Source: Amniculibacterium aquaticum | GTDB taxonomy: Bacteria > Bacteroidota > Bacteroidia > Flavobacteriales > Weeksellaceae | Assembly: GCF_003852705.1 (NCBI RefSeq) | Contig: NZ_REFA01000001.1 | Coordinates: 124,001-188,000 of the forward strand | Reading direction: 5' to 3' | DNA: 64,000 bases | Shown: piece by piece, positions 38,775 through 45,587 of the stretch | Layout: the number at the start of each line of letters is the position of its first letter | Numbering within the stretch: the stretch's first letter is position 1 | The notes under the pieces: model-generated | What the model was told of the DNA's origin: nothing | Seen by the model: the letters and a program-made list of their open reading frames with translations, nothing else | Databases searched by the model: none | Position numbers and translations under genes: made by a program

Positions 38775-39224
38775 ATGAAAAAACTAGCTTTATATTTTGG
38801 AGTTTTAATGCTGTCGGTAGCTGTTGGATGTAAGCAAGAAGCTGAAGAGTCTGTACAGTATTCTGTTGAAGGAACTTGGCAACCTTTTAAAATTGTAGAA
38901 ACCACCGTAACCAATGGAGTTTCGGATTCTCAAATTTATAATTTTTCTGCTTGCCAGTTAGAGTCCAGATGGACATTTAACCCAGACAATACAGGAAACC
39001 AAATGACCAAAGACGAGGTAGGAACCAATTGCGATGTTATTTTGAACGATAACATTACCTACACCTACGATAATATAGCCAATGCATTGGTAATCACTCA
39101 TCAAAACGGTGATGTAGAATACGGAAGAGTGATTTCTCAAAACGATACCAAGATGAATGTGGTTTTAGAAACCAATACCGGTACGGTGTATCATTCATTG
39201 ACCTATTCATTTAATAAAAAATAA
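38775..39224 (+). CDS. Lipocalin-like lipoprotein of unknown function
   Basis: A 149-residue lipoprotein: signal MKKLALYFGVLMLSVAVGC with lipidation at Cys19, then KQEAEES. The mature part has the lipocalin-like opening GTWQPFKIVETTV and alternating beta strands (SRWTFNPDNTGNQ, ITYTYDNIANALVIT, KMNVVLETNTG). Two Cys (ACQLES and TNCDVI) may form a disulfide. Many short proteins of this kind are encoded in Bacteroidota and their ligands are unknown. It is a single gene with a clear terminator; only a weak TAATTTTA box is seen upstream. Confidence 0.75.
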   Translation: MKKLALYFGVLMLSVAVGCKQEAEESVQYSVEGTWQPFKIVETTVTNGVSDSQIYNFSACQLESRWTFNPDNTGNQMTKDEVGTNCDVILNDNITYTYDNIANALVITHQNGDVEYGRVISQNDTKMNVVLETNTGTVYHSLTYSFNKK

Positions 39225-39365: not shown

Positions 39366-39373
39366 TAAATTTG
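39366..39373 (+). promoter_or_regulatory. -7 promoter box for the DUF1800/DUF1501 pair
   Basis: TAAATTTG lies 16 nt before the ATG at 39390, so the promoter is intact although both genes are interrupted. Confidence 0.65.
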
Positions 39374-39389
39374 TGTAACAAAACACAAA

Positions 39390-41018
39390 ATGATGAGCTT
39401 ATCCAAGAAAACTACAGTTTTAGGATACAGTAATGCCTATCATTTATTACGGAGATCAACTTATAACATTACAAAAGCTAAGATACTTAGTTTTTCAACA
39501 ATGACTCCAGATGATGCAGTTACTGTATTGTTTAATTTTACGCCTCCTAATCCACCAAGTCCCCTGAACAATAGTGGAGAGACAATTGTTCCGACCTACG
39601 ATGCACCAACAATTACAGATAGTCAAAATACGACTTCCGGTAGTTTTGATTTGTTTTGGTGGATGTATCATGCCATGAAGGATCCCTCGATGCAGTACAA
39701 GATTATATACTTACTGCATTTATTTTTTGTAACCGATGATGGTGGAAATTACTGGACTAATTATGATTACAAAGAGTTGTTGAGGTTCTATTCTAGTGGA
39801 AGTTTGAAAGATTTGGCGATTAAAGTTACTACAGATCCTAGAATGCTTTCGTATCTTAATAACAATGTCAATAAGAAAAACAGTCCCAATCAGAACTACG
39901 CGCGTGAGTTTTTAGAATTGTTTACCATATTAAAAGGGCCTCAGGTCGATACAGGAAATTATACCAATTATACAGAGTTGGATGTGCAACAAGCAGCTAA
40001 AGTGTTAACTGGATTTACAAACAATAGCAATACATATAATAAAGTCAATCGATTATTAAATGTAGATCCTGTGACTCATTTGCCAAAAGGAGTGATTTCT
40101 ACAACAAATCATGATACTGGAAATAAAACATTTAGTTCTGCCTTTAATAATGCGGTAATCACAGGTGCAAATACCGAAGCTGCCATCCAAACAGAAATGG
40201 AGACTTTTATTTCTATGGTCTTTGATCAGAATGAGACATCCAAAGCCTATTGCAGAAAACTATACCATTATTTTGTAGGTAGAGAAATTACACCCGCGAT
40301 AGAACAAGATATTATAGCACCTCTGTCGGTTATGTTGAAATCAAATAATTACAATATTTTACCGGTCATTAGAGAATTGTTGACAAGTTCTCATTTCTAT
40401 GATGAAGACGACTCTATAATTGGCGATGAGGTTATAGGAGCATTGGTGAGAAGTCCTATGGAGATGTTTTTTCATATGTTTAGTTTGCTTCATCTTCAAA
40501 CTCCTTTGTATGAGGTTAATCCTTCATCAATGCATTCTTTTTTAAGTGTTGTTTTTAGTTATAGTTATAATTCTGGTTTGCCTGTTTTTAGACCTTAATC
40601 GGTCAATGGATATGCGGGTTATTCTAGTAGTCCGCATTTTGATAAAAATTTTATTACAACATCTTCACTAAGAATCCGATACAATTATAGTATTGATTTT
40701 ATTATTAATGGCTTAACATATAACGGATTTGTATTTAAATTGAATAATCCTGATTTTGTAAAGAATTCTGGTAATTTTTCAAACCCAGGAAATGTAGATG
40801 TATTGGTGTCTGAGTTTTGTGCTTTGTTGCATATCGAGATCCCACCTAGCGACCGTTTGCTTTATTTTAAAACTGTTTTCTTAAACGGTTTGAGTCCAAC
40901 AAATTGGCTCAATGAATGGAATAATTATGTTAATACAGGAACTGCAACCAATGTTAAGATTCCATTAGATAGATTGGTGAAAGCCTTAATTAAATCTCCA
41001 GAATTTCAAATTTTTTAG
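39390..41018 (+). pseudogene. DUF1800 family gene interrupted by one in-frame TAA
   Basis: A 542-codon frame broken only by TAA at 40596-40598. Before the stop: NAYHLLRRSTYNITKAK, the conserved NQNYAREFLELFTI, ARG-like KAYCRKLYHYFVGRE and SGLPVFRP. After it the same frame continues SVNGYAGYSSSPHFDKNF and ends LVKALIKSPEFQIF, the normal DUF1800 C terminus. There is no frameshift, so a single C-to-T change of CAA would explain it. DUF1800 proteins are usually encoded beside DUF1501 proteins and are of unknown function. A 402-residue truncated product is the alternative. The region looks more A+T-rich than its neighbours. Confidence 0.8.
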
Positions 41019-41020
41019 CT

Positions 41021-42655
41021 ATGGATCGTAAAGAATTTTTAAAAACAATGACTTTGGCGGGTATTGGTACACCTTTTTTATTGAATGGAATGCCGTCTAG
41101 GGTTATGAATCGCTTTGCTGATTTTAGCATCAGTTGCGATGAAGTGAATGAACGATCTTTGGTAATCTTGAGATTGGCCGGAGCTAACGATGGTTTGAAT
41201 ACAGTAATTCCCATTAGTCAGTACGATACTTACGCGAATCTAAGACCCAATATTAAAATTGCCAATACGGGTGCAGGGGGTTATATTAGTTTGGACTCAA
41301 CGGTGAGTCAAGAGAAGTTGGTGGGTTTAAATCCAAGTATGACTGGGTTTAAGTCTTTGTACGATTCAGGAAAATTAACTTTATTCAACGGTGTAGGATA
41401 TCCGAACCCAAACTACTCTCATTTTCGTTCCGAAAATTTGATGTTCTCGGGTAAAGATGGGGCTAATAATCAAGATTTGTTTGATGGGATTTTTGGACGA
41501 TATCTTGGTGCATTGAATCCTGGTCTAGGTGGTAATCCAACAGTGCTTAATCCTGATCCTTTAGCCATGCAGTTTGGTAATCTTAATCCTTGTCTATTTT
41601 ATGAGCATGCTGTGGAAAAAAGCATTGAGTATAATGCAACGGGATTTCAAAATACATTGTTTAATAGTCTAAAAAGTGCTAATGCTCAGTAACTTGTTTC
41701 ACCTTCAGAGTATAATGATTTATTGAATTATGTAAAAGGAGTAGCTGCAAGTATGGACAGTTATTACAACCGTGTAATGTCTGTTTTTAATGCCGGAAAC
41801 AACTCTACGGTAACCTATCCAAACTCAAGTCTTGGAAAGCAATTGAAAACAGTAGCAAGGTTAATAAAAGGTGGTAGTAAAACCAAAATATTCCAAGTTA
41901 ATATAACAGGATTTGATACCCATGTGAATCAAGTTCAAACCGGAAGTACCAATCTGGGAAGTCATGCTAATTTACTAGGTGATATATCCAATTCAATATT
42001 GGCTTTTCAATCCGATCTTGAGAATTTGGGATTGGTAAATCGTGTGTTAACGGTGACATTCAGTGAGTTTGGAAGACAGGTGAGGGAAAATGCAAGCCTT
42101 GGAACCGACCATGGAGATCTCGCTCCATTTTTTGTTGTCGGGAACAACATCTCTAGTGGTATAAGAGGGGATCATCCTGTTTTCACGAATTCAACAAATT
42201 ATTATTATAATCAAAGTCAAAGACGATTTGATTATCGACAGATTTTTGCTTCTATTATTCAAGACTGGTTGGGAGCAGATTCGGGCTTGATGGATACTGT
42301 TGACTTGCAAAGTTTTGTTACACCATCTCAAAAAGTGGAGATTGTAGTACCCAACAAGTCGGCTAATGTAGTTTGTGCTGCATCTCTTTTTACTGAAGAA
42401 AAAGCGTCAATTAAAAAAATGAAAATTTATCCAAATCCCGCAGATATTTTTATAACCCTTGATTTTGGCCTTGAAGATTGTGTGAAATCACATATTCAAA
42501 TTTTTGATTCTTCTGGAAGACAAATTCTAGAACTTCATAATTCTGAACAGGTTTTGAGAATACCTATAGAAAATTTTAAAAATGGACTTTATGTGTTAAC
42601 GGTATTGTGTGAAAATGGTAAACGATTTTCTGAGAAGTTCCTTGTAAAACATTGA
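41021..42655 (+). pseudogene. DUF1501 family gene with T9SS type A domain, interrupted by one in-frame TAA
   Basis: A 544-codon frame broken only by TAA at 41690-41692. The N terminus MDRKEFLKTMTLAGIGTPFL resembles a Tat-type leader with a weak RK pair. DUF1501 motifs follow: LVILRLAGANDGLNTV, YPNPNYSHFRSENLMFSG, and after the stop the same frame continues LVSPSEYNDLLNYV, ITGFDTHVNQV, VTFSEFGRQVREN and GTDHGDLAPFFVVG. The last ~80 residues (MKIYPNPADIFITLDF to FSEKFLVKH) are a T9SS type A sorting domain. It starts 2 nt after the DUF1800 frame. The upstream 223-residue fragment lacks the sorting domain, so full-length export needs readthrough or reversion. Confidence 0.82.
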
Positions 42656-42728: not shown

Positions 42729-45587
42729 ATGTTCTATAATCATCAGCAGATCGAAAAAAAATGGCAGCAAATTTGGGAAGAAAAACAAACTTTCAAAACC
42801 GATAGCAAAAGCAATAAAGCAAAGTACTATGTTCTGGATATGTTTCCTTATCCATCCGGAGCAGGTCTGCATGTAGGGCATCCGTTAGGATATATTGCCT
42901 CCGATATTTATGCAAGGTTCAAAAGACATCAGGGATTTAATGTTTTACATCCTGTGGGTTACGATTCTTTTGGTCTTCCCGCGGAGCAATATGCTATACA
43001 AACAGGGCAACATCCGGCAGTTACAACGGAGCAAAATATCAATCGATACGAAGTGCAGCTTCGTCGTCTTGGCTTTTCTTTCGATTGGTCCAAAGAACTT
43101 AGAACTTCCGATTCTTCATATTATAAATGGACTCAGTGGATTTTTATAGAGCTTTTCCATTCTTGGTACAACAAATCAACCGATAGGGCAGAGTCAATTG
43201 AAACTTTAATTGAGCATTTTAAAAAATTTGGAACTAAAAATCTGAACGCCTCTCAAACCGAAGATTTGGATTTTGATGCATCCGAATGGAATGCAGCGAC
43301 TGACTTGGACAAGCAAGATATCTTGCTTAACTATCGTTTGGCTTTCCGTGCAGAAACCACCGTGAATTGGTGTCCAGAATTGGGAACGGTTTTGGCAAAC
43401 GATGAGGTGAAAGACGGGAAGTCTGAAAGGGGTGGTTATCCAGTTTTTCAGAAAAAAATGATGCAGTGGAGCATGAGAATTACCGCCTATTCTGAGCGTT
43501 TATTGCAAGGACTTCAGACCCTAGATTGGCCACAACCCTTGAAAGATGCACAAGAATATTGGATCGGTAAATCTCAAGGAGCTTCTGTGAAATTCTTAAT
43601 AGATGGATTCTCAATAGAAAATGATTTAGAAGCCAACAACCAACAACCAATTTTCGACAACTTTATAGAAGTGTTCACAACAAGGCCGGATACCATTTTC
43701 GGTGCGACATTCATGGTTTTGGCTCCTGAACATCCATTGGTTGAGAAAATTACATCTGCTGATCAAAAAATAGAAGTAGAAAAGTATATTGCAGAAACTT
43801 CCAAAAAATCCGAAAGAGATCGTATGGCCGATGTAAAAACCGTTTCTGGTGCTTTCACAGGAAGTTATGCCATCAACCCTTTTACGGAAAAGAAAATTCC
43901 AATTTACATCTCGGATTATGTATTGATGGGCTACGGGACAGGAGCGGTTATGGCGGTTCCTGCACACGACGAGAGGGATCATCGTTTTGCGAAAAAATTC
44001 AGTTTGCCCATTTTGAAAGTAGTCGATACGGAAGTGGATGTGCTGGAAGAAGCATTTGATTCTAAAGACAGCACTTGCGTAAATTCAGATTTCTTAAACG
44101 GGTTGAAGTACGATGAAGCGAAAGAGAAAATGATATTAGAAATAGAAAACAGGAATCTTGGAAAAAGAACAGTAAATTACAAACAAAGAGATGCGATCTT
44201 CTCCAGACAAAGGTATTGGGGAGAGCCTGTACCGGTATATTTTAAAGACGGTATGCCGTACACTTTGCCAACTTCTGCTTTGCCATTGGAGTTGCCGGAA
44301 GTGGAAAAATATTTGCCAACACAGGATGGAGATCCACCTTTGGGAAATGCAAAAAAATACGCTTGGGACGAAACGAATAATAAAATTGTAGATATCGATT
44401 TGATCGATGAAAAAACGGTTTATCCTTTAGAATTGTCCACCATGCCGGGATGGGCAGGGAGTTCTTGGTATTTCTTGAGATACATGGATTCTCAAAATTC
44501 CGAAGCTTTTTGCAATAAAGAATTTTCTGATTATTGGGGACAGGTCGATTTGTATATTGGCGGTAGCGAACATGCTACGGGACATCTACTTTATTCTAGA
44601 TTTTGGAACATGTTCCTAAAAGACAGAGGGTACATTAACCAGGAAGAACCGTTCAAGAAACTCATCAATCAAGGGATGATTTTGGGAATGTCAGCTTTTG
44701 TTTATAGAATAGAGGGTACCCAAAAATTTGTTTCTAAAAATTTGGCGAAAGAATACCAAACACAAAAAATCCATGTCGATGTATCGTTGTTAAAAGGGAC
44801 ATCGGATGAGTTGGATACCGAAGCATTTAAAAGTTGGAGAAAAGAATTTGAAAACGCAGAATTTATATTAGAAGACGGAAAATACATCACCGAAAGAGAG
44901 GTCGAGAAAATGTCCAAATCCAAATACAATGTGGTGAATCCCGATGATATTTGTGAAGAATACGGCGCCGACTGTCTTCGTCTGTACGAAATGTTTCTGG
45001 GTCCATTGGAGCAAAGCAAACCGTGGAATACCCAAGGCTTAACCGGCGTTTACGGTTTCTTGAAAAAATTCTATAACCTTTATTTTGATGGTGATGTTTT
45101 CTCGGTGTCCGATGAAGAGCCTACAAAGGAAGAATACAAGATTTTGCATCAATTGATAAAGAAATTTACATACGACATCGAGAATTTTTCGTTTAATACC
45201 TCAGTTTCTCAGTTTATGATTGCAGTGAATGAATTGCAAAAGCTGAAATGTAATAAAAAGAAAATCCTTGAAGCTCTGGCAGTTATCGTTTCGCCTTATG
45301 CACCGCATGTTTGTGAAGAGCTTTGGCAACAATTAGGGCACGATAATTGTATAGAATTTCAAACTTTTCCAGAATTTAATGAGGATTATTTAAAAGAATC
45401 CGATTTTGATTATCCGGTTAGCATCAACGGTAAAGTGAAAATAAAATTGAGTCTTTCAACCGATTTAGATGCTAAAGCCATCGAGGAAATAGTAAAACAA
45501 GAAGAGAAAATAGTACAGCTTTTAGACGGGAAATCGTATAAAAAATTAATAATTGTACCTAAAAAGATTATTAATATAGTCGTATAG
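42729..45587 (+). CDS. leuS: Leucine--tRNA ligase
   Basis: A 952-residue class I synthetase for tRNA(Leu). The HIGH motif is in GAGLHVGHPLGY and the KMSKS loop in EKMSKSKYNVVNPDDI. The CP1 editing domain shows VFTTRPDTIFGATFM (threonine-rich) and MAVPAHDERDHRFAKKF, with the universally conserved editing Asp. FSRQRYWGEPVP and MPGWAGSSWYFLRYMD are family signatures. It is longer than the ~860-residue E. coli enzyme, as is common in Bacteroidota; part of the extra length lies just before the KMSKS loop. It is monocistronic. Confidence 0.97.
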   Translation: MFYNHQQIEKKWQQIWEEKQTFKTDSKSNKAKYYVLDMFPYPSGAGLHVGHPLGYIASDIYARFKRHQGFNVLHPVGYDSFGLPAEQYAIQTGQHPAVTTEQNINRYEVQLRRLGFSFDWSKELRTSDSSYYKWTQWIFIELFHSWYNKSTDRAESIETLIEHFKKFGTKNLNASQTEDLDFDASEWNAATDLDKQDILLNYRLAFRAETTVNWCPELGTVLANDEVKDGKSERGGYPVFQKKMMQWSMRITAYSERLLQGLQTLDWPQPLKDAQEYWIGKSQGASVKFLIDGFSIENDLEANNQQPIFDNFIEVFTTRPDTIFGATFMVLAPEHPLVEKITSADQKIEVEKYIAETSKKSERDRMADVKTVSGAFTGSYAINPFTEKKIPIYISDYVLMGYGTGAVMAVPAHDERDHRFAKKFSLPILKVVDTEVDVLEEAFDSKDSTCVNSDFLNGLKYDEAKEKMILEIENRNLGKRTVNYKQRDAIFSRQRYWGEPVPVYFKDGMPYTLPTSALPLELPEVEKYLPTQDGDPPLGNAKKYAWDETNNKIVDIDLIDEKTVYPLELSTMPGWAGSSWYFLRYMDSQNSEAFCNKEFSDYWGQVDLYIGGSEHATGHLLYSRFWNMFLKDRGYINQEEPFKKLINQGMILGMSAFVYRIEGTQKFVSKNLAKEYQTQKIHVDVSLLKGTSDELDTEAFKSWRKEFENAEFILEDGKYITEREVEKMSKSKYNVVNPDDICEEYGADCLRLYEMFLGPLEQSKPWNTQGLTGVYGFLKKFYNLYFDGDVFSVSDEEPTKEEYKILHQLIKKFTYDIENFSFNTSVSQFMIAVNELQKLKCNKKKILEALAVIVSPYAPHVCEELWQQLGHDNCIEFQTFPEFNEDYLKESDFDYPVSINGKVKIKLSLSTDLDAKAIEEIVKQEEKIVQLLDGKSYKKLIIVPKKIINIVV

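What the first reader, a model, noticed from the sequence alone, without database searches (positions are those of the whole stretch)
39390..42655. Two adjacent, co-transcribed genes (DUF1800 and DUF1501-T9SS) are each broken by exactly one in-frame TAA
Seen directly: both frames run full length with conserved motifs on both sides of a single TAA (40596-40598 and 41690-41692), with no frameshift and an intact promoter. CAA or CAG fits before the change (RP-Q-SVNGYAGY; Q or another residue in NAQ-x-LVSPSEY). Twin nonsense changes in a functional pair suggest either recent co-inactivation, once one partner was lost, or stop-codon readthrough. A hairpin (ATGCGG 40612-40617 with CCGCAT 40632-40637) sits 13 nt after the first TAA; the second TAA has none that I can see. 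Readthrough would put the T9SS sorting domain on the DUF1501 protein only in a fraction of molecules.
Basis: partly seen in the sequence, partly recalled or inferred. Interest (0 to 1): 0.6.

Follow-up and report, generated by a model that had tools for sequence, protein, structure and literature searches.

The report
Recently broken DUF1800–DUF1501 gene pair
A two-gene operon in a Chryseobacterium-like bacterium carries one premature stop codon in each gene; comparison with 28 intact relatives and one relative that has lost the pair points to ordinary, recent loss of a dispensable function, not to a special decoding trick.

Summary
A DUF1800 gene (39390-41018) and a DUF1501 gene with a type IX secretion tail (41021-42655) are each interrupted by exactly one in-frame TAA (40596-40598; 41690-41692), with no frameshift. 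The genome is Weeksellaceae, near Chryseobacterium. The same pair occurs in 28 of 319 other family genomes searched, and no other copy has a stop. The first TAA replaces a glutamine present in all 23 aligned orthologues. The second falls in a loop of variable length, so its ancestral residue cannot be read. In a 644 kb sample (546 gene models) these are the only two genes found split this way, and they are neighbours. TAA is the ordinary stop here, both release factors are present, and none of 42 tRNAs reads TAA. A same-genus species keeps both flanking genes but lacks the pair. The regions after each stop are as conserved as those of intact relatives, so the stops are probably young. Best reading: recent co-inactivation of a functionally linked pair that is lost often in this family. 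The hairpin after the first TAA is real (11 bp) but occurs in this genome only, and the second TAA has none. Readthrough is not excluded by sequence alone, but nothing favours it. Low interest.

The parts
39366..39373 (+). candidate -7 promoter element TAAATTTG upstream of the DUF1800 gene
   Evidence: match to TANNTTTG (consensus from PMC6847099); weak, expected by chance
39390..41018 (+). DUF1800 gene (542 codons), one in-frame TAA; pseudogene in the best reading
   Evidence: PF08811 E 5e-58 over 18-541 when read through; 28 intact orthologues
40596..40598 (+). in-frame TAA no. 1 (codon 403), at a position that is Gln in 23/23 orthologues
40611..40637 (+). 11-bp hairpin starting about 13 nt after TAA no. 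1; found in this genome only
41021..42655 (+). DUF1501 gene with C-terminal T9SS sorting domain (544 codons), one in-frame TAA; pseudogene in the best reading
   Evidence: PF07394 and PF18962 / TIGR04183 when read through; 27 full-length intact orthologues plus one cut by a contig end
41690..41692 (+). in-frame TAA no. 2 (codon 224), in a loop of variable length
42425..42646 (+). T9SS type A sorting domain of the DUF1501 protein, downstream of the stop
   Evidence: PF18962 hit G000:C1:166425-166646
38775..39224 (+). upstream neighbour, lipocalin-like protein; syntenic in relatives
   Evidence: PF13648; synteny
42729..45587 (+). downstream neighbour, leucyl-tRNA synthetase; directly follows the lipocalin gene in same-genus G002

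Best explanation
The pair is a recently and jointly inactivated two-gene unit. Shown: the two proteins occur together, adjacent, across Weeksellaceae; all other copies are intact; this genome has one premature TAA in each; a same-genus species has lost both genes at the same place. Inferred: one nonsense change (at TAA-1 one C-to-T change in a Gln codon would do) removed the function of one protein, which removed selection on its partner, and a second nonsense change followed before frameshifts, deletions or detectable excess substitutions built up. The truncated DUF1501 product would lack its C-terminal conserved motifs (FDTH, SEFGR, TDHGD) and its T9SS sorting domain, so it could not be exported by T9SS.
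For: 28 of 28 other family orthologues of the DUF1800 gene have no stop, and 27 full-length plus one partial DUF1501 orthologue have none. The pair always occurs together, in only 29 of 320 family genomes, so it is dispensable and lost often. Same-genus G002 has lipocalin then leuS with only a 161-bp spacer where the pair lies in this genome, in G013 and in three Chryseobacterium genomes. No other in-frame-stop split was found in 546 gene models, and the two are adjacent (chance about 0.004). No relaxed constraint: DUF1800 changes at otherwise invariant sites are 6/221 here against 5/220 in intact same-genus G001, and post/pre-stop divergence lies within or near the range of intact pairs, as expected if the stops are young. 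Both genes have low codon scores (5th-24th percentile), as for poorly expressed genes. Decay concentrated within operons is described for Shigella (PMC3218036).
Against: No frameshift or other damage in 3.26 kb. About 4-5% of single changes in these genes make a stop, so two stops reached by purely neutral drift would usually come with tens of other changes and some indels. That is mild tension, eased if the first stop was quickly followed by the second or if either was selected. No conspecific strain or raw reads could be examined.
Confidence: 0.85

Rival explanations
1. Regulated stop-codon readthrough: both TAAs are read through at low frequency, giving a little full-length DUF1800 protein and T9SS-tagged DUF1501 protein.
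For: Both frames stay open and conserved past the stops. A stable 11-bp hairpin starts about 13 nt after TAA-1, which is uncommon in coding windows (0.7%).
Against: No relative has a stop at either place. The hairpin is absent in 23 orthologues and absent at TAA-2. None of 42 tRNAs has a TTA anticodon. RF1 and RF2 are present. None of the 33 T9SS sorting-domain matches in the genome has a stop inside the matched stretch, so T9SS cargo in general is not regulated this way.
Confidence: 0.05
2. Assembly or sequencing error at both sites.
For: Draft assembly in 74 contigs; raw reads were not available.
Against: Two independent base substitutions, each making a stop, in adjacent genes, with no other in-frame-stop split found in 546 gene models. 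Completeness 99.79%, contamination 0.16%.
Confidence: 0.06
3. The halves work as separate proteins (gene fission), with the downstream parts translated from internal starts.
For: For DUF1501 a TTG start lies 10 codons after the stop.
Against: The DUF1800 tail has no ATG and its first alternative start is 48 codons in; the DUF1501 tail would lack an export signal; no relative is split.
Confidence: 0.02
4. TAA is reassigned or ambiguous in this genome.
For: Only that both frames are interrupted by the same codon.
Against: TAA ends 225 of 292 long ORFs in the sample; the genome has standard tRNAs and both release factors.
Confidence: 0.005

Closest known systems
Nonsense pseudogenes clustered in operons, as in Shigella (PMC3218036)
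   Same: Neighbouring, functionally linked genes decay together after one is lost; genes without close relatives' damage show little sequence erosion when recent
   Different: Here only two genes, each with a single nonsense change and no frameshift; shown from one genome, not several strains
DUF1800-DUF1501 gene pairs (PF08811/PF07394), e.g. next to bacterial chitin synthase genes (PMC5122149)
   Same: Same two families, adjacent, same order and strand, predicted one operon
   Different: The Weeksellaceae pair is a divergent subfamily (about 540 aa each) with a T9SS tail on the DUF1501 protein, next to leuS rather than a chitin synthase gene; broken in this genome
Bacterial stop-codon readthrough with a downstream hairpin (e.g. 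selenocysteine UGA, general knowledge)
   Same: A hairpin follows the first stop at a short distance
   Different: Codon is TAA, no dedicated tRNA, hairpin not conserved and absent at the second stop

Membership tests
Recent nonsense pseudogene pair | premature stop against intact orthologues | tested here: met
Recent nonsense pseudogene pair | function dispensable: gene absent or lost in relatives | tested here: met
   pair in 29/320 family genomes; clean absence in same-genus G002 at the syntenic site
Recent nonsense pseudogene pair | relaxed selection after the inactivation | tested here: inconclusive
   no excess change seen; nearest relatives are about 79-87% identical in these proteins and synonymous sites are saturated
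Recent nonsense pseudogene pair | no full-length protein made | not testable with these tools
   needs proteomics or ribosome profiling
Programmed stop-codon readthrough | stop codon conserved in relatives | tested here: not met
   0 of 28 orthologues have either stop
Programmed stop-codon readthrough | conserved stimulatory element or suppressor tRNA | tested here: not met
   hairpin only in this genome; no TTA-anticodon tRNA among 42
Programmed stop-codon readthrough | purifying selection downstream of the stop, after the stop arose | tested here: inconclusive
   tails are conserved, but this may predate the stops
Variant genetic code (TAA as sense) | TAA frequent inside conserved genes, release factor changes | tested here: not met
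DUF1800 (PF08811) | Pfam score over the curated cut-off | tested here: met
   197.7 bits against 26.1 when read through
DUF1501 (PF07394) with T9SS type A sorting domain | Pfam/NCBIfam scores over cut-off | tested here: met
   63.3 against 27 bits; PF18962 43 against 27; TIGR04183 39.2 against 23

The most novel reading that the evidence does not exclude
Low-level readthrough of both TAAs, helped at the first by a newly arisen hairpin, keeps a trace of full-length DUF1800 protein and of exported DUF1501 protein.
Probability: 0.04. Interest if true: 0.6.

Novelty: new member of a known kind. Interest (0 to 1): 0.12.

Why it matters
As pseudogenes the pair is ordinary, but it is a clean snapshot of a functionally linked pair being lost together, and it supports the view that DUF1800 and DUF1501 proteins work only as a unit: in 320 genomes this subfamily of DUF1800 was never found without its DUF1501 partner. 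If readthrough of TAA were shown, it would be an unusual case in bacteria, but nothing here points that way.

Tried and rejected
Pairwise dN/dS on each side of the stops: synonymous sites are saturated even against the same-genus genome (pS 0.83-0.88), so it says only that both parts were constrained before. Reading the residue at TAA-2 from the same-genus genome G001: its contig ends at codon 153 of that gene. A leuS/exbB/lipocalin/glycosyltransferase comparison to order the three same-genus genomes gave conflicting trees, so I do not claim that G002 is the sister. Suppressor tRNA, variant code and missing release factor were tested and rejected. Repeats and consensus terminators around the stops: nothing. 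Structure prediction of the DUF1501 protein was poor (mean pLDDT 42.6), so no fold search was run. No solved structure of either DUF domain matched by sequence.

Full report
What is there. The window lies in a 2.55 Mb draft genome (74 contigs, 99.79% complete) whose closest named relatives for these proteins are Chryseobacterium and other Weeksellaceae. At 39390-41018 a 542-codon frame matches DUF1800 (PF08811) over its whole length, and at 41021-42655 a 544-codon frame matches DUF1501 (PF07394) and ends in a T9SS type A sorting domain. Each is interrupted by exactly one TAA, at 40596-40598 and 41690-41692, and by nothing else.

What the relatives show. Among 320 genomes of the family, 28 others hold the orthologous DUF1800 gene and the same 28 hold the DUF1501 gene; none has a stop inside (one DUF1501 copy, in same-genus G001, is cut by a contig end). 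At the first TAA all 23 aligned orthologues have glutamine. The second TAA falls in a loop of variable length in which this protein is longer than the others, so the replaced residue cannot be inferred. The order lipocalin - DUF1800 - DUF1501 - leuS - exbB is the same in three Chryseobacterium genomes and in G013. In same-genus G002 the lipocalin gene is followed directly by leuS after 161 bp, and no DUF1800 or DUF1501 match remains. The pair is therefore dispensable and has been lost, whole, at the same place in a congener.

Is it special in its own genome? I looked at 644 kb (546 gene models) for genes split by an in-frame stop. Every other candidate whose second part starts late was read by eye and is a normal junction between two different genes. 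These two are the only splits found, and they are adjacent, which by chance has a probability of about 0.004. The sample does not cover the whole genome and does not count frameshift pseudogenes.

Could the stops be read through? TAA ends 225 of 292 long ORFs. RF1 and RF2 are both present (two full-length PF00472 proteins of about 370 aa). The 42 tRNA genes found include no TTA anticodon. The RNA after TAA-1 forms an 11-bp hairpin (MFE -17.9 kcal/mol over 61 nt, z -3.8). Only 26 of 3504 coding windows are as stable, but the region was singled out after it had been seen, and none of the 23 orthologues folds as stably there, although the peptide there is well conserved. TAA-2 has no structure. 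Of 33 T9SS sorting-domain matches in the genome none has a stop inside the matched stretch, and the DUF1501 one is the only sorting domain known here to sit behind a premature stop.

Selection. Against G001 the DUF1800 part before the stop has pN 0.15 and the part after it 0.09; synonymous sites are saturated (pS above 0.8), so both parts have been strongly constrained over the divergence of the genus. Changes at sites invariant in all other sequences are 6/221 here and 5/220 in intact G001 for DUF1800; for DUF1501 the window has 7/263, somewhat more than most, but no same-genus sequence is there to compare. Post/pre ratios resemble those of intact pairs. This fits very recent stops; it would also fit readthrough, and without a close strain the two cannot be separated by sequence.

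Mechanism proposed. One nonsense change disabled one partner; the other, useless alone, followed. Which came first is unknown. Decay concentrated in operons for this reason is documented in Shigella (PMC3218036), and DUF1800-DUF1501 pairs are known as co-transferred, operon-like partners elsewhere (PMC5122149). The low codon scores of both genes (5th to 24th percentile) fit weakly expressed, expendable genes. The truncated DUF1501 product (223 aa) would lack the invariant FDTH, SEFGR and TDHGD motifs and the sorting domain.

Verdict. A recent, joint pseudogenisation of a known gene pair; confidence 0.85. Readthrough about 0.05, assembly error about 0.06. Interest low.

Noticed in passing
L141:1371-5021 (-) (G013, contig of the same length as JAPUEB010000035.1, Chryseobacterium sp. 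labscale reactor MAG14): The leucyl-tRNA synthetase gene is 1216 codons long and carries, in frame, a DUF559 nuclease-like domain (PF04480, E 6.6e-34, residues 348-452) between the catalytic part and the editing domain, bounded by SPKGE / SPLGERG-type peptides; a second short insertion (PPPSPLERVGERI) follows. It looks like a palindromic mobile element living inside an essential gene; the window's own leuS (952 aa) lacks it.
   Followed up: partly
window 40611-40637: An 11-bp hairpin inside the DUF1800 gene, specific to this genome and as stable as only 0.7% of coding windows; probably chance.
   Followed up: yes
G000 whole genome: 33 matches to the T9SS sorting domain PF18962, so type IX secretion has many other cargo proteins in this genome.
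   Followed up: no
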